Assembly (NCBI RefSeq): GCF_009389715.1
Contig: NW_024067689.1
Span: forward strand, 372,001-436,000
Direction: 5' to 3'
DNA length: 64,000 nt
From: Phoenix dactylifera
Lineage: Eukaryota > Streptophyta > Magnoliopsida > Arecales > Arecaceae
Shown: positions 7,266 through 62,771 of the stretch, piece by piece
Layout of the letters: the number at the start of each line of letters is the position of its first letter
Position numbering within the stretch: the first letter of the stretch is position 1
Translations under genes and position numbers: made by a program
Notes under the pieces: model-generated
What the model saw: the letters and a program-made list of their open reading frames with translations, nothing else
The model's database searches: none
What the model was told of the DNA's origin: nothing

Positions 7266-9059
7266 CAGAACAGATAAACTCCTTTTCCTCTTGAAGTAGC
7301 CAAGGGTCTTCTATTGCTTGTGGTTCTTCTTGACCTTGTATTGCTGTCCATTTTTCCTTCCTGCCATTCAACTTGAAATCCATTGTCATGGTTTCATAAT
7401 TTGTGTTCACCTTCCCCACACTTTTAAGCCATACACTCCCAAGGATTATGTCAAGATCAACTAATTGAATCACATGTAAATCAACCTTGATTCTGACCCC
7501 TTGGATGTTCATTTTCACCTCTTGTATGACTTCTTTGCATGTGAGCTTTTCACCATTTGCCACTTTAACTTCAAATGGCTGAATGTCCATAGGATGTAGT
7601 CCCAACTTGGCCACAATTGCAGCGTTGATGAAATTATGTGATGACCCGTTGTCAACCAATAAAGACACTTCATTTCTCCCGACCCATGCTAGGAGCCTCA
7701 TGGTGCTGGGTTTTGACATCCCTGTTAGTGCATTCAATGAAAGTTCTGCATCACTATTTTCAGCCTTCACAAGATCTTCCTGATTTCGGATTGGCTCCTC
7801 TTCATGTTCACTTGACTGATTGGTTTCTGCATCTCCAAAATCTACATCCAGAACTTCAATAAGGAATGCTTGGTCTAATTTGCACTTATGATCTCGGCCC
7901 CATTTTTCCCCACATTTGAAACACAGCCCCTTCTTGATAAAGTCTTGGACTTCTTCCCTTGACAGCCTCTTCACTTGCTGTGGCTGGGTTCTTGGATTGG
8001 TGCCGACTGCATCTTTGCCCTTCCAAGGAATTCTGGGCGGCATAGCTTTGGCTTCACGGCTGATGGTCTCTTTGATCATCCTTCTTTCGGACTGAAAACC
8101 ATCCTCCAGGATTTCAGCCATTCGCATGGCCTCTTGCATGGAAGTTGGTTGCTTTAACTTGATCTCCTTGGCAAGCCAAGGCTTCAAGCCGTCAATGAAT
8201 GTGCCCATCAATGCTTTCTCCGACCAACCTATCACCAATGTTTGCAAATGGCGGAATTCTTCTACACAGGGCCTCACTCTTCCTTCTTGCTTGATTTTTG
8301 CCAATTGTCCATGGTAATTTACAATAGGGGAAGGCCCCCATTGAATCATAAACTCCTTTACAAATGCAGTCCATCCCAATCTCCTTCCTTCTTTTTCATA
8401 CATGGTTCTCAACCATCTCCACCATTTACTTGCTTTGTCTTCAAGATGAAACTAGCAAGGGTTACTTTCTCTCTATGTGGAACCTCATAAACATAGAAGT
8501 ATTGTTCCACCTTATCCATCCATTCAAAAGGATCTCCCCCACTGAACTTAGGGAATTCAATCCTTGGCTTTCTAATCTCTCTTCTAGGCTCTCCCTCATC
8601 TTCTCCTATCTCATCATGATGGGCCCTTCTCACCCTCTCATCCCTTCTTCTTCCTCTCGGTCTAGTGGTAACCCGGGGCTCTTCTTCGGACTCCCTCACA
8701 CTAAGGACTTCCTCATACTCTATTCCTTTCCCAAATCGATCTACACATACCCCAAATCCTTCCACTCAACTCCCTCTTCTTGTTCTTTCACTCCTTCTTT
8801 CTCTAACCCGGCATCCACTATGGTTACTTGCCAATTCTTCCTAATTACCCCTTCCTTGGTCCTGCTTATTAGCATGCGGCCAAGACTCCTTGTTAGTATT
8901 TTTTTCTCCACTTGAAACCCTCCTTTCCAACCTCTCCAAACTTTGATTGGTATCTCTCCTCATTTCAGCCATTGAATTGGAGAGTTCCTCCAAAATTCTA
9001 CTCACTCGGTTGGACTAAATTTCAAGGGCCTCTAACCTTTGGTTATCCCCGGAATCCAT
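7265..9059 (-). pseudogene. Chromovirus gag-protease, broken
   Basis: Starts at an ATG at 9059 after the primer-site candidate. Gag contains the conserved PKFSGGDPFEWMDKVEQYF block (about 8580-8500), then the KWWRWL region and a CCHC knuckle CFKCGEKWGRDHKC (about 7926-7885). An aspartic protease follows with active-site LLVDNGSSHNF near 7670-7640, where the usual D-S/T-G is D-N-G, probably inactivating. Stops interrupt the frame at 9015-9017 (TAG), 8841-8843 (TAG) and 8766-8768 (TGA). A one-base loss at about 8448 shifts the frame between the first capsid block and KWWRWL. Reading ends at the deletion junction near 7265. Confidence 0.9.
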
Positions 9060-9268
9060 GAAAATTTTTAATTAGATTCAGAACAATCCTTCAAAGGCAT
9101 TCAAAGGGAAAAACTAGTCCTGAATTATCAACACCCACAAGGTTCCCTCACGTAGCCCTTCCCTCTTTTACCACTCGGAAATGGCAAATGAAATGAAGGT
9201 TGATTGACTTACTTGGAGGGGAATTCAGATAAATGGCGCTACCTTCAAGATGTTCTTCTTGATGAAGA

Positions 9269-9286
9269 CTCTCAATGAAAGCACCA
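9269..9286 (-). other. Primer-binding-site candidate
   Basis: On the minus strand the bases after the 5' LTR read ATT then TGGTGCTTTCATTGAGAG. The TGG start, matching a tRNA CCA end, and the 3-base offset from the LTR are as expected. I cannot name the primer tRNA with confidence. Confidence 0.6.
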
Positions 9287-9289
9287 AAT

Positions 9290-11086
9290 TGGTGGGGACC
9301 AAGTGTCGGTCATGCACTTCCCACACCAAAGAGTCCCTCTTAGCTTCTTGGCGTTGGCCAAATCAAGGTGTGCCGCCTTGACCGAATATAAATAGCGCCA
9401 GCCAAAGGGAATTTCGGCACTTTGCTCCTCCAAACTCCAAGTATGCTCGGCTATGGATGGAGTCTTGCACTCCTCTTCGGAATTTAAAGCTTTGTTGGCC
9501 AATGAAGACCACTCATATGAGAATGCAGAGGCATCAAAGGCAACTTTGATTCAAAGTGAAAAGGAAATACAATGTTCTAAGGAGGGTTGATGGTTCCCTG
9601 CCTTAGCCTAATCCAAGGGAGGTTGATGTACCCTACCTTAGCCCAAGTCCCTTAGGACCGAATTAGGCAATATGCCTACCCAAGCCTAATGGCCGAATGC
9701 ACTTTACAAGTGGCAAACTAAACAATAACCAAAAGTCCCTCCCCCCACTCAATTCGGATCTATTTGTAGACTCCCTACATTGCCATGCATTGGCTTCCTT
9801 TTGGCTGGCTGTTGGTATGCTTTGGCAACTCCTTTGGAACTTCCATTGCAGAGTTTGCTGTCTTAATTCGGTTGCCATTTGGTTGCTGTCATTGGTTTGG
9901 CTGCTTGCTTGTCTTGGCGGTGGTTGCTTGTAGTTTCTTGCTGTTGCTGGCATTGGCCTGCAGTTATGGTTGTCGGCGGTTTCTTGCTGTTGGCCAAGCT
10001 TTAGCTACTGCAGAGGCCTTGGTTTGGTTGGATTTAGCTGCTGGCACTCTTCTGTGCTTGCCTCTACAGATGGCTGATCTTGTGGTTATGGTCCGGCGCA
10101 CTGGTTCTACCCGTGTCGCGCGCGGTCTGGTGGGCTGCGCATTGGCATTGGCAAGCCAAGCGCCGCCCTTGCTTTCCCGTGCCTGACCTCTTGGTTCGCG
10201 GCTTGACCCTCTGGTTGCTTGGGCGCTGACGGTCTGGCCGCTGGGCGCTGGCCGCCTGGTCGCTAGCCGCCTGGTCGCTGGGCGGTTGCTGCTTGTTGGC
10301 TCCCGCGCGCGCATGAGCTCGGTTGGCTGATGGTTGGCGCGCTCGAGCGGTTGCCTCCTGTTGTGCACGGCACACGCGCGCGCTGGTCTTGGGCGCCACG
10401 GGTCCGCGCGTGCCGACGGTTGCCTTCCGTTGCTTCTGGCGCGTGCGCGCGTCGGTATTGGGCGCCAAGGGCCCGCGCGTGCTGGCGGTTGCCATCCGTT
10501 GCTTCTGGCCTATGCGCGCGTTGGTCTTGCGCGCCACGGGCCCGCGCGCATAGCTGATTTTTGGCGCGCGTCGGCGGTTGCCGCCCGTTGGCTGCCCCTT
10601 GCCTGTGCGTCTGCTGTGCCTTGGTGCGCGTTGGTCGTTGCTGTCCGTTGGCTGCCTTTGGCCTGCGCGTGTCTTGGCTTGTGCTGGGATTGCCTTGGCC
10701 GCGCTTGCGCCTATCCCGTTGTCGGTTGCCTGTGGGTGCACACGCGCATTGGTCTGGACCGAAGGCATCCAGACCTTGCGCGCGGCTGGATAATTGGCCT
10801 GGCCCTCCTGGCCATTCGGTTTGCCTTGCGCTTGGTCCTTGTGGCCTGATGCTTGTCTCGGTTGCAGGGGCGCCCCAGCCGAAGGTCTGCGGCCTTGGGC
10901 GTGCCTCTGCTGTGCCCTGTCGATGTTGCCATTGGCCCAGCCTTTGCCTACCAAGGCTGGCCGAACCTCGATTGTGCCCCAAGGAAGGATAAATGGCCAC
11001 TAGGTGGACATGAGCCTTGCTCTTGCTCCGCCTTGGCCTCTATGATTTGGCTGATTTGGTGAGGTGATATAGAGGGAACCTCACCA
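9290..11086 (-). repeat. 5' LTR of the chromovirus
   Basis: Near-identical to 3993-5783. For minus-strand transcription a TATA-like TATTTATA lies at 9394-9387, close to the inner end, so U3 would be about 1.7 kb and R-U5 only about 70 bp. U3 carries the GC-rich 69-bp repeats. Several minus-strand and plus-strand frames stay open for 200-300 codons here. This is expected from GC-rich sequence with few TA-containing stop triplets and is not by itself evidence of a protein. Confidence 0.92.
10378..10590 (-). repeat. 69-bp tandem repeats in the 5' LTR
   Basis: Cores at 10382, 10451 and 10520 are exactly 69 bp apart, with shorter diverged units beyond. They match the array in the other LTR, so they predate this insertion. 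Confidence 0.8.

Positions 11087-11294: not shown

Positions 11295-11298
<4 letters not shown>

Positions 11299-11348
<50 letters not shown>
11299..11348. repeat. (GA)n microsatellite
   Basis: About 50 bp of AG/GA dinucleotides interrupted once by AT, lying in the distal part of the solo LTR. Confidence 0.95.
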
Positions 11349-13703: not shown

Positions 13704-16700
13704 ATGGAGTACGTGAATCCCCTCACTGGCTTTCGCTTAGATGGTCGCCGTCCCAACGAAGTACCAATCTCTCTCTCGCTCTCTCATTCTTCTATTTGAT
13801 TTTATTTTGTTCACGACCTCGCTTTCGTTTGATTGCAGATGAGGCAGATTCGTGGAGAGATCGGCGTTGTTGCCAAGGCCGATGGGTATGGTTTTTTTTG
13901 GCCTTTTTTTGGTTTCTTTCCCCTTTGTTCCTATCAAGAAACTGTATAAGGAGGCAAGGAGGGAAAAATTAACGAGTTTTGGTTTCTGTTTGGGTTTGGA
14001 TGGATGCAGCTCTGCCCTTTTCGAGATGGGAAACACCAAGGTTATCGCTGCTGTGTATGGACCCAGAGAGGTTTGAACTCCCAAATCCTTCCCTTTCTTT
14101 TCTATAACCCTCTGTTGTTTGTTTTTATGGACTTAAAAATTTATTCCTGCCATGCTTGTACCCGTTTGTTCGTATTTGTTTTTTCTTCTTGATTTGTTTA
14201 CTTGTCCACTCCGATGGTATCAAATCTATTCGATGAAATGAAAGAGGCTTAAAAGAGAATGGGATCATATGAAAGAGGCTTCAAATAGAAAAGAATTATT
14301 AGAAGAGATGGTTAACAGCCCCAAATTTTAATCTTTCCCTAAAATTTGTGTCTCATTATTTGAATTTCTGAACAAATTAGCTTTGATTCTTGAACCTTCA
14401 GGTCCAGAATAAGGGCCAACAGATTAACAATCGAGCACTGGTAACTCTTGCCCCTCTGCAACTTCCATTTTTGAGCACCAAAAGTTTCTTTTTGAGATGC
14501 ATGTACATCTTCTTGTATGTTGTAATTGCATCTACAGGTACGCTGTGAGTATAGTATGGCTAATTTTAGCACCGGAGATAGGAGAAGAAGACCGAAAGGT
14601 GACAGGTGAATCCCCTTCAAAGCAATTGGAAAGTTCTTTGTTTGCCAATTTCTGTATAGTGGTTTATGTTCTTGTTCATGAAGAGTTTTGATGCTGTCTT
14701 GGCACTATAGAGCTGTAGTTATCATGATGTAGAGCTACATGTAAGAATTTTCAGAGTATTTGATTCTGGCATAATATGCATATAAATATAGTCTGCTGGA
14801 ACTTACCAGATAGGGTAAAAAAGGAGTCACCTAATGATGAGTCCCACTCTCCCTGTGGCGACTCTAGATTATATTTTAGCTCAGTTAAATTTTGTCTTTC
14901 TGTTCTTGCTCTACTAGATGGAAAAATTGACAAGATATAATTTATTGGTACATGTGAATTTATATGAACATGATTATATGCTACTTAGGAGGGTAGATAT
15001 GTGTTATCACCTTGATTTACGGGTAAACATATTTGATCCTGTCCTCCTGGCAGGCGGTCTACTGAAATATCTTTAGTTATTCGCCAAACCATGGAGGCAT
15101 GTATCTTGACACATTTATTGCCACATTCCCAGGTCAGTCTCCTTGTCCTTGGGCATTGCTTGTTAGAACTTAATGAATCAGTTTCTGTTTCTTTTCTAAC
15201 GGTTCTTTCTTCATATGTTTTCTAGATTGATATATTTGTCCAAGTTCTTCAAGCTGATGGTGGTATGTTAGACATTCTTGTCTTCACTGGGGCTCATCGA
15301 GTTACTTTTTCATGAACTGGTTTAGATATTTTGATAGCAACTATTGTGTTCTTGATGTTTATCTCCATTCCCCCCTGCCTCCCAATCATCATACACCTCA
15401 TTCTAGTGTAATGAACTGAAAGATCACTGCCATCTCTATGTTTCAATTATCTGAATACGGTCTTCTTCACTATAGGAACAAGATCAGCATGCATCAATGC
15501 TGCAACATTAGCGCTTGCAGATGCTGGGATTCCAATGCGTGATATAGTTACCTCCTGTAGTGCTGGATATCTTTGCTCCACTCCTTTGCTTGGTATGACT
15601 ACTTGCTTTTTGGTGGATTTGCATAACTATCTCTATCAGAATATTAGCAGCATTGATAGAAATTTGTTGATTGCCTTATGGACAGATCTAAACTATATAG
15701 AGGATAGTGCTGGAGGCCCAGATGTCACGGTGGGCATGCTTGCAAAGATGGATAAAGTCACTCTTCTTCAGGTTTATAACTAAAGACAATTATAGATTGA
15801 TCTTCAAATTTCATTGGCAGTACATATTCTAGTTAGCATGTCTCTATTCCTGGATTGCTGCTTATCGAGTTCCATGGCCTTATCTTTGCTCAAACAATCA
15901 TAAATAATTTTTATTTGCAGTGTGCCAATATGCAGCAGGTAGTATGACAGTCATTTTATTTTATTTATTTATTTAGTTTAGATTATTAATAACAATTTCA
16001 TAACTTGAGTTAATATATATGTTTACAGCTTTGTGCTTAATTCATTACTTCTAGTTTAACATATATATGTGTAATTAAAACATTTTCTGAAAGAAATGTT
16101 CTATTCTATGCAGACATTGTTAAGGTTTATAAGTTGTCTTTGCAGAAATTTTAGTGAAAAATGAATAAGAGATACAGCTATCATGCTGTTATCTGAATGG
16201 ATCTTATTTTCCCTAATAATGAAACAATTCTAAGCTGTATTTTATGAGCAAACAAACCTTTGTTCTAGCTTATCTTGAATTGGTCGAAATTCATTGTTTC
16301 TGTAAAATTGATTATTATTTGATATAAAATGTTGGTTTCATCAAATCAATAAAATATAGCTCTTAATATTATCATGTCTATTTGATATCTGAACTGTCTA
16401 GGCATCACAAAGGAGTGACAGTTTTCATAGAAAAACTGCAAAACAATTTTGTTATCTTTCATTTAATTCATAACATAATCTTACTACAAAGTAACCGATA
16501 ATACTGAGAAACTGCACATTCAGTTCTTTTGATTCCTACATATCTGTTAATGTGTGTATGATTCTGGAAATATCGTGATGAGTGCAAATTCTTTCTTTGG
16601 GACCTGAATCTAGAATTTCTAGATTATAGGAGTATAAATATGTTTGACTTTGGTGTGCGGCTTTACTGTTTTCGTGGCTCATGCACAGTTTCTCTTGAGT

Positions 16701-17111
16701 TCATTTTGATGTCATTGATGGTTTTGTTGCTTAAATCTCAGATGGATGCAAAGCTACCAATGGATATTTTTGAAAATGTAATGCAACTTGCAATAGAAGG
16801 ATGCAAAGCAGTAGCTCACTACATACGAGAAGTAAGAGATGTTGTACTTCTCTTACATTTGTTCACATTTTCAAAATTTGTTTTGCTTTTAGAGTATCCG
16901 TTAATTTTTACTTTATCCTTATCTTTTGTATTCTTATGCTATGCTCTGCATACTTCTAAAAAGATTATATCAGATGCCATGATGCACAAGCTAAAATATG
17001 GATGCCCCCATTACCTGCTTGCCACTAATTTGTGTATGTTTCCTGATGGCTGATCTGATACAGGTTCTACTGGAGCACACAAAGCAGCTGGAGTGTCATC
17101 GTGGTGCATAG
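13704..17111 (+). CDS. RRP41: Exosome complex component RRP41 homologue
   Basis: RRP41 is an RNase PH-fold subunit of the nine-subunit exosome ring that degrades and trims RNA in nucleus and cytoplasm; the plant protein is reported to retain phosphorolytic activity. Eleven exons with GT-AG junctions: 13704-13760, 13839-13885, 14010-14070, 14402-14440, 14538-14605, 15054-15132, 15226-15262, 15476-15592, 15686-15771, 16742-16831, 17064-17111. They total 729 nt and encode 242 residues, matching the family length of about 241. Conserved landmarks are GFRLDGRRPNE at the start, MGNTKVIAAVYGP near residue 45, the STGDRRRRPKGDRRS loop, ADGGTRSACINAATLALADAG near residue 140, and LLEHTKQLE before the stop. 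The ATG at 13704 gives the expected MEYVNPLTG start. The reading frame is intact throughout, unlike the neighbouring genes. Confidence 0.96.
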
Positions 17112-20202: not shown

Positions 20203-23200
20203 TCACAAGCTTCTAATGTCATCAAGATGATCACTGCAGTAGGTGGTGGAAGGAACAGCGGAGAGCTCCAGCCGCCCCGTCCATTCCTCACCTGGTTTTA
20301 AGGTAATCGGTTTTTCAATCGCAGCACCATCTACACACAACATCTGTTTATACTCCTCGTCTCCAAAATCAACGATGGTTTTGGATTTCTTCTCCCATGG
20401 ATTCCAGACAACTGTAAAAGAAAAGGGGTAGGAAACTTTAATAAGCGCTTGAACTGAAAACATCTATAAACCAAAACTACTGTAAGTTGCTTCTCTTTAC
20501 ATTCTCACATTGATTCCCCACCTCATATTTTTCATATATGCTGATGAAGCTAGATTATATACCAGGCCCTCTTAATTTATTTTTCGTTTAAAGATCATCA
20601 AGTTGTACGGATGTCTGAAGTTGTAGTAGGGGCACGAACAACGAGGAATGGAGTTACATGCATTTAGTCCCCTCATCAGTTATACATCATTTCTTTACCG
20701 AAAAAAAGATGGATGGATAACTAAGAAAGATCACATGGAGAAAGATCCCAAGCTTGCTTGCATGTTGGAACTTGCCGGCATCTTCACCATAAGAGGTACT
20801 GGTTTAACATTAGGAAAATAATTAAAATGAACCCTCCCAAAGGTTATGGAATCAGAACCTTAGACTCTAGATGTTGGGTGACAAAATTTAATTGCTCAAC
20901 TGCGATAAATGGCATCACGAAATGAGCTAGCAGCGAACTAGATCAAGTAAAAGCTATAAATTCTCCTTACAGACAAAAGCAATGGCATTCTTTATACTAC
21001 AAGAGAATGCCTAAATTGGATTTTGAGAGGGTTACAGCAGGAAGGAATCTTGTTGTAACATTTTGTAGACCGACTAATACTTCTAAAGAATGCATTTTAT
21101 ATATTTAGCCATGCAACAACGAAAGCGGTATAGAATCTTTAATATAAGTACAACTTCTACATGCCCAAGAGCTCTTTATATACAGGGATTGCAAAAGCAC
21201 AAGCATCTTTCCTCAAGTGCCTCTCTTGAATTTACATTTGCAGAAACTCTTATTCCAAAAATGATATGCAATATTAAGTTCTTGTCTTATTGTTCACCTG
21301 TCAATCTGACATATTTTAGACGTGCAGGAGAAAAGGATCACCCGGCAATCCTAATATCAGGCAAGCTAATTGCATTTAAGGCATAAAGAAAATCAGATGC
21401 ATAATCTGAATTGATTTCTTATGTTAGAACCGTATATCTAGCACTTCTTAGTTGTTACCTTGGTAAATTGCTTTCTGTAAGAAATTCCCTAGCCCAAAGT
21501 AATCAAGTCAATGTTCATAGTTTTAAATAGAAAAGATTTTAAAAGAAGTACTATACCGATAGCAACCACATGCAAATCTACAACAGAGACGAATGTGCAG
21601 ATCTGGACAATTTACAAAGAAAGTGTATCTTACCAACATCAGGCAACCCTTCCTTTCTAATAACAAAAGTCTGTTTCTTTTCGTGGTCAAGTATCGCAAT
21701 TATATTTGGAGAGCCAAGATAAAAGCGATCGACCTGCAAATTAACAAAGATTTGTGATCTTTCATGCCCAAGACTGAAAAATATTATATTAAAGTGTATT
21801 TTAGCATTATAATCATGCTGAACTAATGTATGTAATATAGCCACCACATGATGCTTCAACATCCTTCTTGTTTTTGTGAATAATTTAGAAATTCATAAGA
21901 ACCATGATAATCCAAAGATGGAAAACTAGTGTCAGACAGACAACATCATTATTATTCAAAGACTTATAAGATGTGAATTCTAGAGACCACTAAGATTTAA
22001 ATAAAGACAAGATCTAAGTACATTGTCTTTTACGTTCTTGATTGGTTCTGTTCCTAAAAGTTATATAATATATTCTTTCTAACTTAATCCTACTTCCTTG
22101 CATGGTATTAGTCACAATCTGGAAGATCCTAGTTATTTCGAACAATCAGCACCGAAATTCTCATCTAGCATTTGTCATTCCATATTACTTCAAGATGTTA
22201 CATTTTACTGGCAGATTTGCAGTGTTCTCATTATCCTTAGTTAACGACAATTTGATAAAATCATTTGTCCTGCTAATTATCAGAGCAAAATGAAACGTTA
22301 CGCAGCAACAACCATTCAGTGAAAAACCATAACAAGCGGAATAGAGGGTGGAGGGAAAGATTATCAGCAGAAAAAAAATGCATTAACAAGCACAAATGAC
22401 AATTCGACTTTACCACATTTAAATTCTCTGTTCGTATTATTTTGCAATAAGTAGAGGCACGTACATCATGTTTTCTAACTTCCAGAATAGAATAGGGTGG
22501 ATGTCTGGTAGGATGTGCAAACACTTGATATAAGTTTTGTTTTGGAAAAATAAGGATTCTCAGCGACACCAATAACCAAAAAGTGTTTACCTCAGACTCA
22601 AATGTTATGGCATCTCCTTGTTCTGTAAAGCGCTCTCGTTGGCAAAGATTGTCCAGATAATCGAGTGTCTCCAAACCTTCTATCCTCACCTCACTGTGGA
22701 TACAAGGTTCATGTATGCAACAAAGTGAGAATATCTTGAGTCTTAACCTTGCAAGTTTATAAAATACACCACTCGGAGCAATTTGGTGAAAAAGATGAGT
22801 GATCACTCAAGTTGAATAATGTTTTTCAATTATGAAAAACAAAATATTTTTGACAGTATTTGATAAGACTAAGAAACCATGACTATTGCATAGTTCAGGG
22901 AATTGACAGGACAAACTTGAACTCGTACTTCATATATAATCAAAATTTCTAGTCATCATAAATAACATAAAAATTTTAGTGCCTAATGCCTCGTCCTTTC
23001 TAGTGTCTACCACAATTTCGAATCTATATTACAATATACTGTGCTAATCTGAAAAAAAGAAAGAACTTATTTTCCGAAGTTCAAGATTTGATATAACTGG
23101 AAAATAAGAGTTTTTTTTTATATAAATCCTTTCTGCCAAGTATTGTGCAATACTTAAAATGCACTAGAGTTTATAGCAAAAGAACAGACAATGCCATGTT

Positions 23201-26200
23201 TACATAAAAGAAAAGTACAATTGCACAGTAAATGGAAAGTATGATCATCATCAATTTTCAATCAGATTAATTGCAGTCCCCATCTAACTAAACAAAATTA
23301 ACTATGCTATGATGATGAGAAAATATACCTGATGTCAGAAACAGAGAAATATGTGTGATAAGCAAATGAGAAGCTAAATGGCTTCATATCAATGTTTCTG
23401 ATACGTGATACTATTGCAAGGCCTCCATCCATTGCAAGAGATACTCTAAGGCGTAACTCAAAACTGAAAACCCAAATAATATTTATGTTATTCATATAGA
23501 TGCAAAATGATGGAATAAAATAAAGAAACATGAAAGAATGATAAGATAAAAGTAAAAAGAAACAGTGAAAAAATAAAATTGATACACAGAAAATTGCAGC
23601 ATAAATGGTCATTATCTTTAGTCCAATATTTATGTCATCCATGTATAACAGAAAATTACATGTGATTGGTCAGCTTCACATAAAGTACGCATTTGCCCTG
23701 GCTTTCAACATGACCATGTAAGTTATGATCTATTTGCAGTCATAGCTATCTTTGGTAGCAGCCTCTATATCAGCTTGATATGAAGAAATCCTTCAAAATG
23801 ACCTTCATAAAAGAGCTTCATAATGGACAAACACTCCAGTCCATCTTAAGCAACATCGGTCACATGTTTGTCAATCAAATCATGTAATTAATTCTCTCGC
23901 TAGGATCCTGCTACATGGTTTACGAAATTCAGTCAAGCAACTACGAGCTTGAATCACTTCATTTGTAGTCACATTCAGGACTTGTTAGAATCCTTATTCT
24001 TCTTCCCTGATAATTATATATTAGTAACTATCCAATTCCTTTTCAGTCTGACAGGAGGCACCCTCAAGTCCTCAATACCAAAATAAACTGGAAGACCTTC
24101 ATAAGCCTTAGAGAACTTTGTGGACAAATTCTCCCCAACAGAACTACATAACTGGTATACTTCATCATTCTCGTATGATCAAATTGCATCTTGCCAATGG
24201 CTTAACTTCCAGCAAAATGGCAGTAACCAGTAAGCTGAGTTTTTATGTTGTGAACCAATAACGCAATGAAAGTGCTATTCAGATTGCCAGTAATGATATA
24301 TGCTCAAGAAGTGACCAAAGCATTAGAGACTAATCACCTTCATGTCCGCAATGACTCACCTTAATATCCTACAAAATAATGTTCAGAATTCTATTTGCAC
24401 TTCAAATTCTTATTGGTAAATGTATCCCTGAGAAAGGAACGTCCATCTGAGAAAACAATTCATTATAATGATAAAACTGTTTGATGTAATGATGTAAATT
24501 GTTTGTCATAGAAATACCAACTTGCATGATTACTGGCAAAAGGAGATATCCATTTAAAGCATGCATGATTACTGTCAAGACAATTCGGAATGGAAAGTTA
24601 GCTATTAAAGAAGTGGTACTCAATATTTTCTAAAATTTAATGGAATACATCCAACATGTATCAAGTTCTGTAGAAAAGTTTTGAAATGAAAAACTACAAT
24701 TAGGCAGGGTGCACTTTATTTTGCCAGATGAGAATTAAAATCTTGTTCTTGATGCCATCTACTCCTGTTGAAGTAATGAATGATTCTCTCCCTCATAACT
24801 CTAAAGTTATAAAAGGAAAAATAGTTGAAGTAGTGCCTATAAATATGCTTCAAACCTTAAGATAATCGCAAACTCCTTGAATTAGGTGTTTATATGTAAT
24901 ATATCGACACTCATCATTTCCAAGAAAAATGCCAAATCAACCTATTCAAATCAAATATATATTTTTTCTCAAATGGTGATACAATAGAGTCACTTCTTAA
25001 ATTGCTCTCATGTAAATAAAATATTTGAAATGTTATATCCAGAAACCACATTGATGCAGAAGTTCCACAAATTGATTTAAAAGTATCAGCACTGGTTTTG
25101 AGATTCCACAGTTTAATACTTTCAATGTTTAACAGACAGATGGCTTCTGCAGAGGGACAATACTACCTCAAATGAGAACAAGAAAAATTTGCAAATTTTA
25201 GATTGAAACAATTTTAGAAGTCGCAGAGAAATGAAGGGCTCCCATGTCAACTATTATCTTCTCGTTTAAACTGTTTGACACAGCAAGTTCCAGATATCAC
25301 TATTTTTGTCCTTGCCATACAAAATATTGTAAAATTGCCTACAAGAAAAAACCCCATACCAGTGCGGCCAGCATTTCAGATCATCTTCTGATGGTTTAAG
25401 CAGCAGGTCAACAGAAACTTTGCCTGGGCTATCATTGGGGTGCAAAGGTGGAGGATCGTTATCAATGCTCCATGTCTTGTTCCTTGCAAATCCATGTTGT
25501 TCCAGTGAACCACGGTTACCAAACTACAAAGTAAAAAACCAAAATCGGAGCAAGTTGAGATGATTGCTGAACTGACATAGAAAACCATCAGAATGATGGA
25601 GATCACCTGTGGAAAGCATATAAGAATTCCTCCCCGCATTGCTTTTGGTGGCTTAAAGATTGCCTGAGTTCAGAAATCAGCAGAATGTTAGAGTGTGTTT
25701 ATACAATATCTCAAGCAGAAATCTCCAGTACAATTTATAATATAGGCACTGACAGAAGATACCAGGAAACACAAGAATTTTACACACAAGTTTTCTAGAG
25801 ATGCATATTTTGTTCTTAAAATTCAAGTAAAAAGACAGAATAGAATGGTTGGGAGCATATAAGATATAACACAAACCAGCCATATCCTAATGGCGTTGAA
25901 TTTCCAACAGTAACCTCCATGAGATGCAGCAGATTTCCAAATAATGTACAGCTGAGTATATAACTTATCTGTATAGTTAACCTATAAAGAGAATTTACCA
26001 TGGTACTTGTGGTGCAGAAAATATCACATGTTTAGATTCAGAATGCTCGCTCTCATCATTTCATAAAGAAGCATACACAGAAGTTATATAAAATCCTCTT
26101 AAATAGGTGCATCAATGATGTTCAGCTCTAAAAGATCTATGGCAATGCGTCCCATATATTGGCTTCATGGATTGTCTAAGTTACCAATATTGCCAATACC

Positions 26201-27805
26201 ATTATATCCAGCGATACCAAACAATAGATGCTTGATATCATACTACAGTCATTAATGTCTTTATTAACAGATGAGCTCCAACATCATATCAATTCCCTTA
26301 AGTTAGCATGCTAGATCCTACTCTTGCTTCTTTAAATTCTCTTGCATGATCACATAAGACATTTATATTCTATAATTTGCCCGCTAAAATACTTGCATAA
26401 TGTGGTGGCCATGGCAGTGAGAGTGGCAGTGGCCATGTCGTGAAGATCATGTTTTTCTCAGCTAACATGTACATTGGTTATAGGTTTACATACTCTGGCA
26501 TACATAGTATCAAGTCAATCGATGTTGTACCACAAATAATACCATAAAAACAATAGCCTTATTGAGTCAGGGCATATTTAACAGCATTGATTAGAATCAG
26601 CAGCACTTTTTTACAAAAATATGTTGCAAAACCAAAACATATGATTCTCTACGAAGCCTGAAGTTAATCAAAACATAGGAATTTCTATGAAGACTGAACT
26701 TTTATTAAGTTAACATCCGTTATTGGATTGATTCTTCCATATCGATTGGATTTCAGAATGGAGACATATAAAATTGGAAATGACATAAAGAAATAAGAAG
26801 AATACAAGCTGACTTAACATGTCACAGCCCTTCAAGCATTGATGGAAAGAAAAAGATTCAGCAATATTCTCATAACTGCACCTTACTGCTAGTGAATAAA
26901 AGTTCTTTGCCCCTTTCATTCTTCCATGAAACAACCTGCCCCCCGTGCAAACTTACCTGAATTGCTGACAGAAGAATTATCAGAATAAACCAGAGGGATA
27001 TTCAGAAAAGAACTTTAACACATTAAAGAAAAATGCAAATGTCTAAGAGTCAAGGCTTAGAGCTAAAATATCTGAAGTAGCTAGGGCTGAAATTAGATCG
27101 GATAAGGATCGGATACTAGCATATCCAATCCATATTTGTTTTGCTTAATGAATACAGATGTTAGTTGGATGCAAAAATTCATATCAATATTTGTTTTAAA
27201 CATATACATATACAAATCGGATACCAAAAGTATAGATATAAATACGGATATAAATCAGATAATTAAACTTTACGACTACAAAATCAAAAATATTGCTAAG
27301 TGAATAGTAAAACAAGTTAATTACATGTTAATATGGACATTTATTTTTCTTAAAAAATTATGAGTGCTATGTAAAATTAAATAGGATAACAAATGGAATC
27401 AGATATTCAGATATGGATCAGATAGTTGTCTATCTATATCCATATCCATTTTTCTTTAATGAATATGGATACAGATACGGATATTAGTCGGAATGCTCAA
27501 ATTTTTATCCATATCCGAATAGATTCGGATACGAAAGCAGATCCGGATGGATATTATCCAATCCATTTTACCCTTAGAAGCAGCCAATAGGAACATAAAC
27601 CAAATACAGAAAAAAAATTATGTACATATCTCAGTTTAATTGCACGGATAACGAAAAGAAAAAGAACAAAAAGCTAGAAGGGGAGAATCTCACTCGAGCA
27701 GAAGCTCCTCGTGGTGCTTTAAGTGTAAACATGATGGATTCCGTTCAAGTCCTTTGTAAATTCGAGCTCTGATCTCTGATCCCAAACAGTTGTCGAATGG
27801 CCCAT
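20203..27805 (-). CDS. Putative glucose-6-phosphate 1-epimerase (aldose 1-epimerase family)
   Basis: Family members interconvert the alpha and beta anomers of hexose 6-phosphates. Exons on the minus strand: 27805-27694, 26956-26882, 25663-25607, 25523-25360, 23463-23329, 22693-22591, 21733-21634, 20411-20203. Landmarks are MGHSTTVWDQR, VSLHGGQVVSWKNERG, KPPKAMRGGILICFPQFGNRG, QHGFARN, FSFAYHTYFSVSDISEVRIEGLETLDYLDN (split across exons; includes the catalytic-type His), VVWNPWEKKSKTIVDFGDEE, and LKPGEEWTGRLELSAVP near the end. Exons 2-8 are in frame (GT-AG). Exon 1 from the family-typical ATG at 27805 is 112 nt instead of 111: an extra base in the T-run at 27727-27729 shifts the frame. Without it the protein would be about 317 residues, normal for the family. 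An in-frame ATG at 27732 would give a 293-residue N-truncated form. Confidence 0.9.
27081..27577. mobile_element. Foldback MITE-like element in epimerase intron 1
   Basis: The ends are imperfect inverted repeats: CTAGGGCTGAAATTAGATCG at the left, and CTAAGGGTAAAATGGATTGG as the reverse complement of the right end. The interior is built of repeated GGATAC/GATATCC-type words that pair across the centre. This resembles the widespread plant elements with GGATACGGATA-rich arms, often linked to Mutator-like families. A clear target duplication was not established. Confidence 0.55.
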
Positions 27806-44100: not shown

Positions 44101-44137
44101 TCAGACTTTGGAGGAGTCCCAGCTTCATTATCCCCAT
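35198..44137 (-). CDS. G-box-binding bZIP transcription factor (GBF/CPRF type)
   Basis: Binds ACGT-core promoter elements as a dimer in the nucleus. Exons: 44137-44079, 43542-43498, 43392-43300, 38735-38658, 38237-38081, 37949-37896, 37786-37737, 37106-36841, 36291-36214, 36098-35970, 35425-35198. The N-terminus is the Pro-rich MFMR region (PYPDWATMQAYYGPGVMPPP, then HPPHSYMWGPQ). It is followed by IATPLSMEMPAKSPGNKDKG and KTQRKRSSED. The basic region DERELKRERRKQSNRESARR with SRLRKQ has the N-x7-R signature. The zipper (ALRSEISRLSENSNKLRLEN) follows, and the tail ends HQLLDSNPRTDAVAAS. Several exons carry run-length indels: start exon (C4 at 44132-44135), 38175-38176, the zipper exon, 38658-38735, and 37896-37949. 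Corrected, it would be about 413 residues. As written it is not translatable end to end. One intron (36840) has a GC donor. Confidence 0.9.
35590..35700. mobile_element. SINE-like remnant (Au-SINE-type motif)
   Basis: The stretch CTCAACTAAAATTTAATCCC, then AAACTCGTGGGGTCCAGCTA, then CATGAATCC is close to the plant Au-SINE-associated sequence (CAAACTAGTTGGGGTCGGCTACATGAATCC type). It lies in the last intron of the bZIP gene. Ends and target duplication were not resolved. Confidence 0.5.
37181..37660. repeat. Tandem duplication in a bZIP-gene intron, with an inner 60-bp duplication
   Basis: Unit A (37181-37390, 210 bp) and unit B (37391-37660) both start AGAAAAGACT and end GAGATGCATGATGAAG. 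Unit B is longer because about 60 bp (CCATAATGAGAATAAATC to CAAATATGTTA) is repeated within it, at about 37475 and 37534. Confidence 0.8.
40614..41010. mobile_element. Foldback MITE with GGGGTGCAA termini in a bZIP-gene intron
   Basis: Left terminus GGGGTGCAAATGAG; the reverse complement of the right terminus is GGGGTGCAATCGAG. The arms are rich in GAGCTCGAG and CTCGAGT words that pair across an AT-only core (about 40740-40850). A firm target duplication is not visible. The style is that of common non-autonomous plant DNA transposons. Confidence 0.6.
41311..41338 (+). repeat. C10-A18 homopolymer pair
   Basis: Ten C followed directly by eighteen A. Such junctions are prone to replication slippage and to sequencing error. 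Confidence 0.9.
42213..42312. repeat. Perfect-looking 50-bp tandem duplication
   Basis: TGATTTAGTTCAGCCTCCTA... to CAACCATTGTC is repeated at 42213-42262 and 42263-42312 with one visible substitution, indicating a recent duplication in an intron of the bZIP gene. Confidence 0.85.
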
Positions 44138-54813: not shown

Positions 54814-57800
54814 ATGGACTACGATTATCGGAACCGGACGGGCCCGACGTACCGTCCCGGCGTCGGCGGTGGCGCCGCCTCCTTGTACCCCAGAGTCGCT
54901 CAGCCCGGCCACCCGCCGGTCTCCCGAGCCCCTTATCTTCATCCATCCTCCTCTGCTCCTCCGTCCTGTAAGACCTTCTCCTCTCTCCTTTCCCTCGAAA
55001 ACCCTATTTTCATCAATCTCGATGAGCGATGATCGTATCTCCAAGTCGCTAGGGCTTTGTTGGTTATGGTTTCGTTGTGGTTATGACGAGGAATTCATTT
55101 TTTTTTCTTTTTCTTGAACCCTAATTGGAACACGGCACCGAAAAGAAGTATAGTTGATGACAAAAATAGGTCATAATCATCTCTTATAATCGGTTTCTTG
55201 TCGCTTAAGATAAATTCGACCAGTTCAAGAATTATTGGTTTAATTGACAAGTATTAAGTGCGATCAGTCTCGCAATATTAATTATTGTTGTTTTTTGCTT
55301 CTTTTTTTTTGATGATGTCTGCACCATCAATCATGTTAACTTCGTGCACAATCCTGAAATGGTTCCTTGTTTACAATATACTCGTAGTGTAAACTTACCA
55401 GGCTTACTGTTCTCTTTGTTATTGCATTAGCAGAGATGATATTTTGTGCCATTGAGATTGATACCCGAGTTCCTCGAAACATTGTTGTCATCCAATGTCC
55501 CTCAAGTTCTTGATATCAACATTTTCATGATTTGTAATTCAATCTTTAGGATCAGAACTTAGTAGCACGTCAGAAAGACAGTTCTTACAAAAGGTGATTG
55601 AATTAGATTAAATCTTTCTGATGTAATCTCCTTTTCTAAGTATTTTCTTTCTCAATATCTATACAAAGTGATTTTGGTTTTGAAAAGAATCCCTGTTTGA
55701 GTTAGGATTCTTAATGGCTCCGTATTCCCCACCTTCCTAAGTTTATTTCCCAGAATTACCTAACATTTTACACTACAAATAAGATCTTAGACAATGAAGA
55801 TTAAAACTATAGTTTCTAGATATGTTCTGGGATTGTTTGGGGAGGCAATTTTCTTTTCTTTAGTGTTAAACTTACCAATGAGATTTATTTTCACACATCA
55901 AGCCCAAAAGAATCTTATATGGGATTGATAGAATATTGGGCTTCTCTTTTTTAGTCTTTTATTTGAGCACGATGTCTAGCTAAATTTTAGAATTAGGACA
56001 AGTCAATTTGAACTTTATGTAAGTAGTTCATATCAATTTATGGCTCATGCATACTTTCTTGAAAGAAAATTCTCTGTATGACCCTAAGCTTTCGTAATAT
56101 TGGTATTATCATGCTATTCTCGAGCAATTTCTATCTTTTTTTATCATTTTATAATCCACAGGTGACAGGATTCAATAAATATAAGTCTATTTGTGTTACT
56201 TGATAACTGAACTACATAGTGATGCTGATTAATTGGGTATAGAATCAAAAGAATTTTGCACATTTTATGCCTGGTTCCAACCTATCCTCGGGCTTGGTCC
56301 TTTGCATCATTTTGCCTGCATACAATGTCAAATACTACTTTTATTAAGTAAAGCAAAATGTGACTTCTAATCTTCTAATTACATTAAGGTGAGTGTTGAC
56401 AATTTTTCTTCATTTGAATGACCTGGGCATATGTTGGTTGGATTGAATGACAAGAGTTCCTATTTTCTTTACTGTTATTATGCAGTTTACCAGCCTTATC
56501 TAATTTTACTTTATTCCAGGGATATGATACTGTGATTACTACTGGACTCTGACTGCATGACAATATTGGATACTTTCAAACAAATATTTGTTGCTTATAA
56601 TAATTTAAGCTTATGTACTTAAATTCAGATAATAATTTTAATCTGGTATATCTTCTCATCTTTGCATACTATAATCTCTTTCCCCCTCTCTCTCTTCTCT
56701 CTCCCCCTTCTCCCTCCTTCCTGGCTTGATTCTTGTGAATTATATTTTAATTAACATGTTCAAATACCATACAGTTATCCATATTTGTCAATGGATACCA
56801 AATTACCAATCCAATTTTTGTTATAGCATGCCGACATTGTGCATCATTAAATAAGATACACCTATTTATGGCAGCAGTTGCTATTACAATTTTTTTTACA
56901 TCATGAGCACATTGTGTTTCTCTGATCTTCATTACAATGACCATATCAAGGGAAATATCATGGTCAAAATATAGCATACTTTCTAAAAGATTAAGCTTTT
57001 TAGATCTGGAGTATAAAATCATGGCCAATAAACTTTTGTTCATTATGGCCAATGTTTTCAAATTCCTTTCATACTATCATCTCATTTCACTAAGGCTTCT
57101 TGTTATCTGTCTGAAAAGCACATTGTAAAGTTGAGATGCACAACTAGAATGATTTGATGTTTATTTTAGTTTCGTCATAATGCTATATCTGAGCAGGGAA
57201 GGTTATATACGATCAGGATAGTTTTTATGTTACTCATGATTGGATGCAACATTTACTAACTAAGCTTGTTTCTGAGACTTATTATATGTTATAGTTTTCA
57301 ATTCACTTTTAACTCCATAGGAAATGCTGTTTGTTATTTTACTTTTAGCCTTTGGCTCCTCATGAATGGAACATTTCTTATAGCTCAGGTATTCTATCTT
57401 GTTTTGCAGCAGGATTGGGCATTCGAGTTACAATAAACCAGAATATCAGATAACACCTCCTGTAAGATTCAATTTGCTGTTAATTATTTTGATGCGGATT
57501 TATTTTGATATTGAATTCTGTTCGTAGTACTTGTTTACTTCCTATGTCTGAACTTTTACTCTTCCCTCTTTGGTTCATTCCGTGACTATGAGAACCTTAA
57601 GGGTTTCTCCAACTAGCATGAGCTTAAGTTAAGACAAGGTAAATTTATCTACTCAAAATTAGCTACTTGAGTTAATTGTAGATCCCTCTCCTGCCAAAAG
57701 TTATCTATACTGGAAATGATTTATGTAAGGTTGGCATCATGTTGAGAGCTGACATACTTTGGTGGATCATACTTTGATGTTGAGAGCTGACATACTTGGT

Positions 57801-60800
57801 GGATCATACTTTGATGTTGAGAGCTGCCATATTAATGAGAAAATATTATTGATTAAAGGTATAATTATAATGAAAATTTTCTTGGCATGCCATAATAGTT
57901 GAATTAATCAATAGCCAGTTGAAGCCTTATAGTAAAGAAATGGATCAAAAGATCACAAGTACAAAGCCAATGAAAGCTTCTTCAGTTCATCCATAAAAGT
58001 TGGTCTAATTTCTTATGATAATTCAAGATACATTTTTTTGAGCCGTCCGTGAAAAATTATACACCGTGTTTGACATGCAAGTAGAGAAGAAGCTCATGAT
58101 GGAGTAAATAATCATCTTTTTGATATAATCTTATGAATCCATCTTCACCATCTTATGAGTTTCAGCCTTGAGAACTTATTCTATTCCTTCTTTGCAACCT
58201 ATCCTATTTCCATTGTCTTTCATTTTTTTGCTTGAGCCATCAACACAAGCACGTGCCTTTTTGTTGACAAAGGACCCATTTGTCTTTGTTAAGCATGAAT
58301 ATTTATTCTGAAATCACTATCACTTTGTTCAATGTTGATGCTGCACCTTGTCTCTTTATAAGCCACTTTTTAGGTTGAACTGCCTCTGTCTCATTTCCAC
58401 CTTAACCTTTGAAAACACTAGGTTGGCCTCCTATCCATAAATATGCCTTTTAGGTTTCATGGCAGGTCCCTGTCTGGACTAAAATTGCCTTGGTTATAGA
58501 CTTGATGCTGGTTTTTTAGAGGCTTGACATTAAGTTGACAGTCAGTTAAAAGTTGGTTTACTCTTCCATGAGCATTATGAACTTTTAGTTGTGATCATGA
58601 CTGACCCTTTTTTGATGGCTATGGTCTTGGATGACAATGCTTATGTGACAATGTCAAGGTGATTCATCATCTTGTCTTTTTAAGACGTAGGTTCACTGAT
58701 TCTTTCGGTTCTGTTTGGTAGACTTTCTCAGGATAAACATCAGTGTGTTGACTAGTCACAGAACATGTTGAAGTTCAGTTTCTTATGGTTATGTCGCTGT
58801 TAATGTTCATGAAAGACTGGCTACACAAGGTTGGTGGTGCACTTTGAGAAGATGTTGGTTCATCTGATGGTTTATTTTGCTGCTTTAGGGAATGACAATG
58901 ACATTTTGATCTTAAGACTGTGTTAATTCATTGTTTATTGTTTAACTTGTCTTCTTGCATCTGTGTCATTACCTTGTGAGTTTCATGTTGGTATCTATAA
59001 CTATTGGCTTGATCCCAGATTATATGCTGGTACATTGCATTTATTCCTTATTTATTCTGTAAGTACCTGATATTAGAACTGTTTGAAATGCTTCTCAATT
59101 ATTTGCTGTGTATATTAATGTATTTGTCCTTCTTATGGAGCTTCTATTGATTCGCAAAATGGACTAAGTTATTTAGATTGTATTTGTACATCCAAGGGAA
59201 TAATTGTATGTTGTTTTTGTTGATTGTTTTCAAGTTCGCATCTGGCAAATCTCTAATTATGATACCGACCAGTTTCATCTCTAATTATATGAGAATGCTG
59301 TTACATTATATTGTTTTTCTTTTTTGTATTTTTTTATTTTCAGCCTCAGCTAGTACTCAAGTGGCAGAGGTTCCTAGGAGCACATTTCAGTTCGACTTTG
59401 ACTTTGAAAAGAAAATACTTGCTGAGGCAGAGAGAGATAGCCAGAACTGGAGCAAATTTGCAGTGGAAAGTCAGTCATCAAAACTGCAGCTTCATCCATC
59501 TGTGGTATATTATTTTTCTCGCTACTGTTAATTTGAATATTAGTGCGCAGATACAGTATGTGTTTATTTTTCTGACAGCCTAGAAGTTAGGTGATGTTAA
59601 TAGCATAGGGTAATTTATGCCTTTTTCTTTGGCATTCTAACTTTCTGGACAGAACAATTAAACAGAACAATAACTCTGGAATTCGAGTGATCATTAAAAA
59701 AACCAGTACACCAATCCCATCAAAGGATTGTGGCTATCGTTATTATAATCACGCAACTTTAGTTGGTTTAAGCAGATTCAGACATTCTCTAAATGCTTTT
59801 CTGAAATTCTGAATAAGAAGGTGTCTATGCGTCAAAGATTATTCCATATCCTGCTCATCATTTTCACAAGTCACATTGTTCTAGACATCTGTTTTTTGGA
59901 AGTTTGGTTTCTTAGAATAGTTAATGGTGGAACTTATTGTAATTTTAAGCAACACACTGCTTAATTTATTTTGCGTTGGGCATGGTTTTACAATTTCAAT
60001 CTCTGCAAAAAATAAAAAATTCCGGTTGACATCTCAATATGATGAAGGGCTAAACCAAGGAATGCGTACCGGTCCGTACGGCCGGTACGGGCCGGTACGT
60101 ACCGGTCCGGTCCTGACCGGTACCGGACACAGATGAAAACCGGTATTTCCGGTTTTCTTCTGTGAACCGGCCGGTACGGAGACCGTACCGGCCGTACCTG
60201 GGCCGTACCGCTTGGTACCGGCCTCGTACCGGTGCGAACCGGCCGGTTCGCACCGGTACGGTATTTTTTCTTTTGGGGGGGGAGAACCACAGTGCCTCGC
60301 TGTGGTTTTTTTTTTTTTTGATGGGAAAGAAAGTGGTCCGGACCGGTACGGTACCGGTCCGGACCGGTACCGTACCGGTCCGGCGGCCACCGGTACGCCG
60401 ATCCGGACCGGTACGGCGGACCTTGGGCTAAAACAGTTTCAGACTGAAACCGTGGTCGAAATGTTTTAGAAAATTCAGAAAGTTTTAAATTGCCGTAATA
60501 TAATTGAAAACATAATTATAATAGATAGGAGTACCATGTTAATATTTTTTGTTTATTGGACGAAGTGCAATGCAGCAAGAAGCCGATGCAAATCATGTGC
60601 TCTGAAAATTTACAATGGCGGAACAAGATGTTATGACCTTATGTAGTCATGAAATTGCATCATTTGAAAAAATATAATAGTTGGAAGATTATCGTGTTAT
60701 ATGCCTTTTATGCTGAAAATATAGATAGTGGGCGGGATTAGAACTTACTAAATGGTATAGATTGTAATGTATGTGAATCAGAACAGCAATATTAGAATTT

Positions 60801-62771
60801 AGTTATAGTACGGATTACATGTATGTGAACGAAAACGGCAATTTAAAAGTACTTTTCTCCATTATCTAGTCAATATCTCAAAATTGATGAGCTGCCTAAT
60901 GATATTTGGTGTACTTATTTGTCCAATGTGGATGGTTAGGCGAAAAGTGATATAGAGTCCATAATCTGGTATATCGTTGCTGTTCTAGGGACATCTTTGA
61001 TCGCCCTATTCTAATGCTAGTTTCCCAGACTGATAACCTTGCAGTATGCAGAACCACCATGTTGATTACCTCTAACCCTAACCCTGATGATTGTCATCAT
61101 TTGCCTTGTTGGGTTGGTCGCATTCCCAGCAACCACTAAACCTCATTTCTGAGATTATCTTAAAAGAGCCTGAATTACCCACATCAGCATCCTCAACATT
61201 GTCATGACGTGGTCTTTATTCGGGGATTAGATCAATGGTGCATGATATATGCTTAAATCTTTGTAATAGTCTTAATGGATGATGACAGATAACTAAGACA
61301 TTGTGCAAAGCTGCAGTATAAATTGAATAATCAGTTTATTCAGGATCATGGAGCTCCAATTCCCTTGCTGCTCATATGTACTGGATATTATATGTTATGT
61401 CCACTGTTGTATATACATTTTTTTAATGCACTGCAATCTCTTTACAATATGCATCATCTGAACAATATGAGAATACCAGATAATTTGTTGTGACCTGGCT
61501 GCCCATTCAAGTCAAAATCAGATTAGCATGACTAAATGATAATGTATATGACTTAGATGCCTGTCGACTGACATTCAACTGCATGCAATAGAATGATATG
61601 TATGTGTTCCAAGAAGTTATGAACCTGACATTTGCTTTTCCTTGAAGGGTTCAACAGGGGATCCAGTAGTGGACAAATATGTTGCCTCAGGGCTTGGACG
61701 AGAAGCTGTATCACTTGCAGTTCTAAATTATGGAGATAATCCAACAAAGGTAACAATTAAATCTCCAAATTCCTTTGTCAGAAAAGAGATTATATTTAAT
61801 GAACTATTTAGCAATTATAATTAATTGTCTATTTGGTCCAGTCAGCCCAGCTCCACTCGTCACTGAGCAAATGTGTCACCATAAATACATTTTTTTTTTG
61901 TTTTTACTGTCAAGTCTTAACTGCTGCTAGATCATCTGCGCAAGCAATTATAAATATTTGAAGTGAATTAAATTTTCATAACTATGTTTCCAATTTGTTT
62001 GCTGCTTGTTAAGATAGGTTGTCCCTCCTACCAACCAATCCTCTTGGTGTAGTTCGGTTGCCTGAAATTGCCTTAGAAGGAATGTGGAACCAGAGGCACA
62101 TCAGATTAGAGACTTGGTAGCAGGAAACTTCTATCTAGGTTGACGACCTTGCTCTGAAAGGAACTCAAACTAGCATCTGCTCTCTGAGCACTTCCATCAA
62201 ATATTTTTAGAATATTGGCTTCCATGCACCTGCACCTTTGCCTGCTCCTGCATCTAATCCTGATTCTGGACTAAGGATTAAATTGGCAGGGCTCACAAGG
62301 AATCTGCAAGCTTTATTGGATTGTTCTTTGATCAGTGAAACCAACCTATAGATGGAACATGGCACTCTGGTCAAGTCTAAGGCAGCAACCCAAGTTGATT
62401 ATCATCAGTTAATCTGGTGACTAGCCCAGTTTATTAGATTGCCATTCGTGTTACAAGCTTAGTCTGGTAACAATCTGACTTTTGCCTGTTAGACTATATT
62501 ACGGTGGAATTATCTGCTGATTGGATGAGTCAAGGTGGTAAGCTAATGAAAATGCGCAATTAAGTTTGCTGTTAAATTTTTATGATTTGGAGGTATGAAT
62601 TTTCACCGACTCGGGATTTTTTTGATCCTTCCAGGTTAGGGAGTTTGTGAAAGGCTATAATCTTCTCCGAGAAATGGGTTTTCTCTTCGAAGAATGTGGC
62701 TGAAGCACTGGCGATGTATGATAATGACACTGACAAGGCTTTGGGCTTACTTCCTCAACAGTTCATCATGA
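54814..62771 (+). CDS. UBA-domain protein (plant UBA/TS-N family)
   Basis: Small plant protein with a C-terminal ubiquitin-associated domain, presumably a ubiquitin-binding adaptor; its exact role is not known to me. Exons: 54814-54967, 57410-57461, 59344-59504, 61648-61749, 62635-62771, all GT-AG. It starts MDYDYRNRTGPTYRPG, with a Pro/Ser-rich N-terminus. A GLGIRVTI and EYQITPP segment follows, then VPRSTFQFDFDFEKKILAEA and ERDSQNWSKF. The UBA region has DPVVDKYVASGLGREAVSLA, LNYGDNPTKVREFVKGYNLL and MYDNDTDKAL. Run-length changes break the frame at 57435-57437 (one A short), about 59355 (one base short), 62679-62682 (one T extra) and 62743-62745 (one G extra). Corrected, the protein is about 201 residues and ends FLNSSS at the TGA 62769-62771. 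As written, a TGA at 62701 would end exon 5 early. Confidence 0.88.
57739..57850. repeat. 37-38-bp tandem repeat (about 2.5 copies) in intron 2 of the UBA gene
   Basis: ATGTTGAGAGCTGACATACT starts units at 57739 and 57777, with a third partial unit at 57814. The first two units differ by one T in a T-run. Confidence 0.85.
60055..60426. mobile_element. CCGGTAC-rich palindromic insertion (MITE-like) in a UBA-gene intron
   Basis: The block is assembled from GTACCGG, GGTCCGG and CCGTACC words. It contains a perfect 36-bp palindrome (60225-60260), a perfect 46-bp palindrome (60338-60383), and shorter hairpins (GAAAACCGGTATTTCCGGTTTTC region at about 60135; CACAG...CTGTG near 60285). The ends are inverted (CCAAGG at left, CCTTGG at right) and extend imperfectly to GCGTACCGGTCCG. 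The flanks share GCTAAA to GGGCTAAA (60047-60054 and 60425-60432), a 6-8-bp target duplication. No transposase. GC content is far above the surrounding intron. Confidence 0.65.

What the first reader, a model, noticed from the sequence alone, without database searches (positions are those of the whole stretch)
8409..62771. Conserved frames across the window are broken almost only by homopolymer run-length changes
Seen in sequence: expected frames switch at single-base runs at 8448 (gag, one short), 27727-27729 (epimerase, one extra), 38175-38176 and 44132-44135 (bZIP, one short each), 57435-57437 and 59355 (UBA, one short each), 62679-62682 and 62743-62745 (UBA, one extra each). On both sides the residues remain family-typical. 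Inference: a mix of gains and losses restricted to runs is what uncorrected long-read or pyrosequencing consensus gives. Genuine gene death would also leave substitutions and non-run indels. RRP41 is spared. Any automatic gene call here would be truncated or split.
Basis: partly seen in the sequence, partly recalled or inferred. Interest (0 to 1): 0.8.

Follow-up and report, generated by a model that had tools for sequence, protein, structure and literature searches.

The report
Run-length errors in date-palm assembly
Three ordinary date-palm genes look broken here almost certainly because the published genome sequence miscounts short runs of identical letters, and a public protein entry has inherited the damage; it is an artefact worth flagging, not new biology.

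Summary
The window is date palm (Phoenix dactylifera): a public Phoenix protein (P0126, 183 aa) equals the window as written, 183 of 183 residues, starting at a reported break (38175) and ending in intron read-through. No in-frame stop appears in the three broken genes. Run-length changes exceed a random-indel control and fit a run-only control, also outside the two densest clusters. 21 of 22 events lie right of 28 kb. Consensus error is by far the best explanation, more likely PacBio than 454: the window has no gap, and the PacBio assembly's own paper reports a gene with frameshifts, many not seen in other palms' reads. The gag break should be set apart: that Gypsy element looks naturally dead (no reverse-transcriptase match in the pieces searched, an in-frame stop, 79 substitutions but few gaps between its LTRs). 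No reads could be examined: the artefact is inferred, not proven.

The parts
3993..11086 (-). Defective Gypsy-type LTR element; LTRs 3993-5783 and 9290-11086, flanking repeat CCAGC; its gag break (8448) is not counted with the host genes
   Evidence: LTR pair, ends and flanks; gag, protease, integrase pieces; in-frame stop at 6194-6196 from abutting same-frame ORFs
8446..8452 (-). Frame change in gag reported at 8448
   Evidence: by eye; Pfam gag match begins at residue 1 of the downstream ORF; upstream piece alone unmatched
13704..17111 (+). RRP41 exosome subunit gene, 11 exons, 729 nt, intact
   Evidence: RNase_PH and RNase_PH_C Pfam matches; PDB match to human RRP41 E 6.3e-77
20203..27805 (-). 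Glucose-6-phosphate 1-epimerase gene, 8 exons, 955 nt as written, one frame change in exon 1 (near 27728)
   Evidence: ortholog P0241
35198..44137 (-). GBF-type bZIP gene (MFMR, bZIP), 12 exons, 1299 nt as written, 7 to 17 single-base frame changes depending on penalty
   Evidence: ortholog P0121
35970..36098 (-). bZIP exon 11: cluster of 5 single-base events (4 gains, 1 loss)
37896..37949 (-). bZIP exon 7: one loss near 37918; a further gain in a run at its donor or at the start of exon 8 (splice-dependent)
   Evidence: public protein P0126 carries the out-of-frame residues
38081..38237 (-). bZIP exon 6 with the reported loss at 38175-38180; public protein P0126 starts at 38175
38391..38452 (-). 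bZIP exon 5: one gain near 38425, one near 38391 (splice-dependent)
38658..38735 (-). bZIP exon 4: cluster of 6 single-base losses
   Evidence: (permissive setting)
44079..44137 (-). bZIP exon 1 with the reported loss at 44132-44135 just after the start codon
   Evidence: read as a codon gap at the strictest setting
54814..62771 (+). UBAP1/UBA2-type gene, 5 exons, 606 nt as written, 4 frame changes (57436, 59355, 62680, 62744) and 3 uncertain ones at 59484-59500
   Evidence: ortholog P0001

Best explanation
The breaks in the three host genes are base-count errors in the consensus of a date-palm genome assembly, most likely the long-read (PacBio RSII, FALCON-Unzip) assembly, in a stretch right of about 28 kb where read depth or polishing was poor. 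During consensus calling, short runs of identical bases (here 2 to 4) were written one base too long or too short. The living palm probably has intact genes. Shown: the frame changes, their fit to runs, the absence of stops, the uneven spread, and a truncated public protein made from the same letters. Inferred: the sequencing platform, low local depth, and intactness in the plant.
For: P0126 of Phoenix dactylifera is identical 183 of 183 residues to the window as written, including out-of-frame residues and intron read-through. 22 events, 10 gains and 12 losses: run-length share 16.42 against 8.2 (sd 1.8) for random indels and 15.3 (sd 1.4) for run-only indels; same outcome for the 11 events outside the two clusters (8.67 against 4.0 and 7.9) and for the 9 that also do not depend on splice choice (7.50 against 3.3 and 6.2). 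No in-frame stops; identity to Elaeis outside the events 184/194, 379/416 and 288/310. Relative rates: UBA window-specific 4, 6, 3, 4 against Elaeis-specific 5, 3, 3, 2 with four outgroups. LTR pair: 79 substitutions, 2 gaps. 1 of 22 events in 1,684 coding nt left of 28 kb and 21 in 1,905 nt right of it. Zero N in 64 kb, while the 454/SOLiD assembly DPV01 has contig N50 10.81 kb (PMC5714197, passage of Table 2) and the PacBio assembly 897.2 kb (PMC6794320). That paper says its CWINV2 has multiple frameshifts, many not present in other palms' resequencing (passage).
Against: No reads, transcripts or second date-palm assembly could be examined. GBF shows more window-specific than Elaeis-specific changes with 2 of 4 outgroups (15:6 and 14:6; the others 10:12 and 11:9). 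One of 22 events has no run-length explanation among its best fits. Runs are short, whereas classical run-length error grows with run length (recalled). The PacBio assembly was polished with Quiver, Arrow and Pilon, so this density (21 in 1,905 nt) needs a local failure that I cannot show. Natural slippage also favours runs.
Confidence: 0.9

Rival explanations
1. Real gene death: the bZIP, UBA and epimerase genes are natural pseudogenes in this palm.
For: Many frame-breaking events in two genes; bZIP shows a modest excess of window-specific changes with 2 of 4 outgroups; an intact-length paralog of the bZIP exists in Phoenix (P0124, 444 aa), so loss could be tolerated.
Against: No in-frame stops. 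Splice sites all GT-AG, with one GC-AG. UBA and epimerase show no excess of window-specific changes. The natural decay seen in the same window is substitution-dominated: 79:2 in the LTR pair against 21 indels and about 19 window-specific residue changes in bZIP plus UBA (rough comparison of bases with residues, Fisher P 1.3e-10). Gene neighbours look ancestral: the three Elaeis orthologs list contigs of one and the same length, and Tetracentron locus tags HHK36_029095, 029096 and 029097 are consecutive, so these are not stray copies.
Confidence: 0.05
2. Consensus error, but from 454 pyrosequencing (the DPV01 assembly of cultivar Khalas) rather than PacBio.
For: 454 was used for DPV01 (PMC5714197), and run miscounts are its typical error (recalled). 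The 1,392,297-bp contig of P0126 is not impossible there, with scaffold N50 334 kb.
Against: No N in 64,000 bases where DPV01 contig N50 is 10.81 kb. Errors sit in runs of only 2 to 4 and cluster at up to 6 in 78 nt.
Confidence: 0.12
3. The gag break shares the cause of the host-gene breaks (artefact).
For: It lies at a short run and leaves family-like residues on both sides by eye.
Against: The element is dead anyway: in-frame stop at 6194-6196, about 320 nt between the protease and integrase zinc-finger matches and no reverse-transcriptase match in the 6 pieces searched, 79 substitutions between LTRs. Its LTRs show few gaps, so artefact density here is low.
Confidence: 0.25
4. Wrong gene models: the apparent breaks are introns, alternative splice sites or programmed frameshifts.
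For: Two of the 17 bZIP events depend on the splice donor chosen.
Against: The other events lie inside exons with canonical splice sites and with aligned residues on both sides. Programmed shifting at about twenty places in two genes has no precedent that I know of.
Confidence: 0.02

Closest known systems
Residual run-length errors in long-read plant assemblies (case: CWINV2 in the date-palm BC4 assembly, PMC6794320)
   Same: Same species, PacBio; coding region with multiple frameshifts, many not present in other palms' resequencing (passage seen)
   Different: That is another gene on LG14; the authors left open whether it is a pseudogene in that individual
Gene-fragmenting errors in long-read assemblies of small genomes (Kastor, PMC12007338; abstract start seen in listing)
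   Same: Consensus errors introduce frameshifts and premature stops that make genes look dead
   Different: Small genomes; here a plant gene with introns, where run errors may also touch splice donors
Natural pseudogene
   Same: Frame-breaking changes
   Different: No stops, no consistent acceleration, indels outnumber or equal residue changes, ancestral neighbours

Membership tests
Assembly consensus error | Single-base gains and losses tied to runs beyond chance | tested here: met
Assembly consensus error | Coding constraint otherwise kept (no stops, no acceleration) | tested here: met
   stops 0; relative rates (UBA and epimerase even; bZIP excess with 2 of 4 outgroups)
Assembly consensus error | Absent from accurate reads or transcripts of the same plant | not testable with these tools
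   no reads held; the genome search did not complete
Assembly consensus error | Uneven along the sequence, following read depth | tested here: inconclusive
   uneven: 1 of 22 left of 28 kb, between-gene test P 0.0004; depth unknown
Pseudogene | In-frame stops or relaxed constraint | tested here: not met
GBF-type bZIP | MFMR and bZIP domains in an ortholog aligning along the gene | tested here: met
   P0121 Pfam; alignment 379/416 identical
Glucose-6-phosphate 1-epimerase | Aldose_epim domain ortholog | tested here: met
   P0241 Pfam E 4.1e-72; 288/310 identical
UBAP1/UBA2-type protein | UBAP-1_UBA2 domain ortholog | tested here: met
   P0001 Pfam 27.5 bits (cut-off 27); 184/194 identical
RRP41 | RNase PH domains 1 and 2 and full-length match to solved RRP41 | tested here: met
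Gypsy LTR retrotransposon | LTRs with target-site repeat, gag, protease and integrase | tested here: met
   the integrase core match (28.1 bits) is below Pfam's cut-off of 32.6
Gypsy LTR retrotransposon | Reverse transcriptase between protease and integrase | tested here: not met
   no match in the pieces searched; about 320 nt between protease and zinc-finger matches

The most novel reading that the evidence does not exclude
The sequenced palm truly carries a local burst of run-length mutations right of 28 kb, as from a lapse of mismatch repair on one haplotype, that recently broke the bZIP and UBA genes before substitutions could gather.
Probability: 0.03. Interest if true: 0.6.

Novelty: not a real feature. 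Interest (0 to 1): 0.15.

Why it matters
A public date-palm bZIP protein is truncated because of these letters, and cultivar comparisons against the BC4 reference report high-impact frameshift variants (PMC12295771, passages). Wherever the reference itself has a miscounted run, a normal cultivar would be scored as carrying a frameshift; whether any variant in that paper is of this kind I did not test. Gene-loss or expression studies touching this locus would be misled.

Tried and rejected
Rejected: gag as part of the same artefact, since the element has natural lesions; a window-wide error rate, since the left part is nearly clean. My by-eye idea that the 59355 loss is not run-like was not borne out (its one best fit is a run change). 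A plasmid search gave no match and was uninformative. Rfam found nothing at gathering thresholds.

Faults of mine: one search stopped on my own coordinate check and was redone. The simulation used a protein slice one residue off (19 of 273 identical) and is void; replace it, while the left/right test, Fisher test and site matching do not use that slice. One search asked for too many bases. In clusters the classification has fewer flanking codons and is less constrained, so I repeated it without the clusters. The 3 uncertain UBA events (59484-59500) were dropped before the counts; with them the run share is 16.8 of 25. The divergent paralog P0122 gave 16 or 12 bZIP events, including two at 36864 and 36860 not seen with P0121.

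Papers: PMC6794320 abstract and passages; PMC5714197, PMC6686914 and PMC12295771 passages; PMC12007338 search listing only; the DPV01 paper (10.1038/ncomms3274) was not held. The 8 literature searches were made; I did not find this locus discussed in their listings.

Full report
What is there. The window (64,000 bases, no N) holds four plant host genes and one Gypsy-type LTR element. RRP41 (+, 13704-17111), glucose-6-phosphate 1-epimerase (-, 27805-20203), a GBF-type bZIP (-, 44137-35198) and a UBAP1/UBA2-type gene (+, 54814-62771) were modelled exon by exon. Splice sites are GT-AG throughout, with one GC-AG. Best relatives of the three broken genes are oil-palm proteins P0001, P0121 and P0241.

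Which genome. P0126, a public 'common plant regulatory factor 1-like' protein of Phoenix dactylifera (183 aa, on a contig of 1,392,297 bp), is identical, 183 of 183 residues, to the window as written from 38175 through five bZIP exons into the next intron. I did not find out how the public annotation treats the other two genes.

The breaks. Frameshift-aware alignment of the joined exons to oil-palm orthologs recovers all seven reported host sites, six of seven at the strictest setting. The permissive setting gives UBA 7 (4 firm, 3 uncertain), epimerase 1 and bZIP 17; the middle one 6, 1 and 11; the strictest 4, 1 and 7. The epimerase, aligned with three relatives at two penalties (six alignments), gave the same single event each time, so the permissive setting does not scatter false events there. 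No alignment has an in-frame stop. RRP41 needs no correction: 729 nt, one frame, matching human RRP41 at E 6.3e-77. Two bZIP events depend on the splice donor chosen.

Are they run-length changes? For each event I asked which single-base explanations fit the ortholog best and what share of them only changes the length of a run. Over 22 events (10 gains, 12 losses) the share sums to 16.42. Random indels placed in intact epimerase exons give 8.2 (sd 1.8), run-only indels 15.3 (sd 1.4). Outside the two dense clusters, 11 events give 8.67 against 4.0 and 7.9; without the two splice-dependent ones, 9 events give 7.50 against 3.3 and 6.2. The runs are short, 2 to 4.

Why not gene death? The LTR pair of the element records natural mutation in this genome: 79 substitutions, 65 of them transitions, and 2 gaps in 1,790 aligned bases (blastn reports 76 mismatches and 5 gap openings). 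Twenty-one natural indels in bZIP and UBA should have come with far more substitutions and some stops than are seen. Relative-rate counts against four outgroups show no excess for UBA (4, 6, 3, 4 against 5, 3, 3, 2) or epimerase (8, 6, 7, 7 against 9, 9, 9, 6); bZIP is uneven (15, 10, 14, 11 against 6, 12, 6, 9), partly perhaps because residues next to unresolved events count as changes (inference). The neighbourhood is ancestral: the three oil-palm orthologs list contigs of the same length, and in Tetracentron their locus tags are consecutive.

Where. One of 22 events lies in 1,684 coding nt left of 28 kb, 21 in 1,905 nt right of it (binomial P 1.8e-5, which treats clustered events as independent). 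bZIP exon 4 has 6 losses in 78 nt and exon 11 has 5 events in 129 nt. This looks like a stretch of thin or unpolished reads (inference).

Which technology. Of the published date-palm assemblies that I saw described, DPV01 (454, SOLiD, ABI3730) has contig N50 10.81 kb (PMC5714197, passage), and the BC4 assembly (PacBio RSII, FALCON-Unzip, polished with Quiver, Arrow and Pilon on about 13.8-fold Illumina data) 897.2 kb (PMC6794320, abstract and passages). A 64-kb stretch without N fits the latter better. [quoted passage not shown] The attribution remains an inference; I could not place the window on an accession (genome search did not complete).

The gag break. The element has intact LTR ends and a CCAGC flanking repeat. 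Gag and protease lie in one ORF, integrase pieces in others. About 320 nt separate the protease and integrase zinc-finger matches, too few for a reverse transcriptase, and none of the pieces searched matches one. The integrase core piece (below Pfam's own cut-off) and the C-terminal SH3 piece are in the same frame, split by a stop. This element is dead for ordinary reasons, so its frame break says nothing about sequencing error.

Verdict.

Noticed in passing
3993-11086: Gypsy-type element with full LTRs and CCAGC flanking repeats but no recognisable reverse transcriptase in the pieces searched, and an in-frame stop between integrase core and C-terminal domain.
   Followed up: partly
20203-62771: The trio epimerase, GBF bZIP and UBA gene seems to be an old angiosperm neighbourhood: consecutive locus tags in Tetracentron (HHK36_029095 to 029097) and near ones in Asparagus (C05F27130, C05F27160).
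   Followed up: partly
37475-37592, 42213-42313, 57739-57831: Three recent short tandem duplications (96-98% alike) in the error-rich part of the window; whether real or assembly-made is unknown.
   Followed up: no
60040-60440: Array rich in palindromic CCGGTACC / GGTCCGGACC units inside an intron of the UBA gene.
   Followed up: no
36841: bZIP exon 9 ends at a GC donor, the one non-GT donor in the four gene models; natural or artefact not tested.
   Followed up: no
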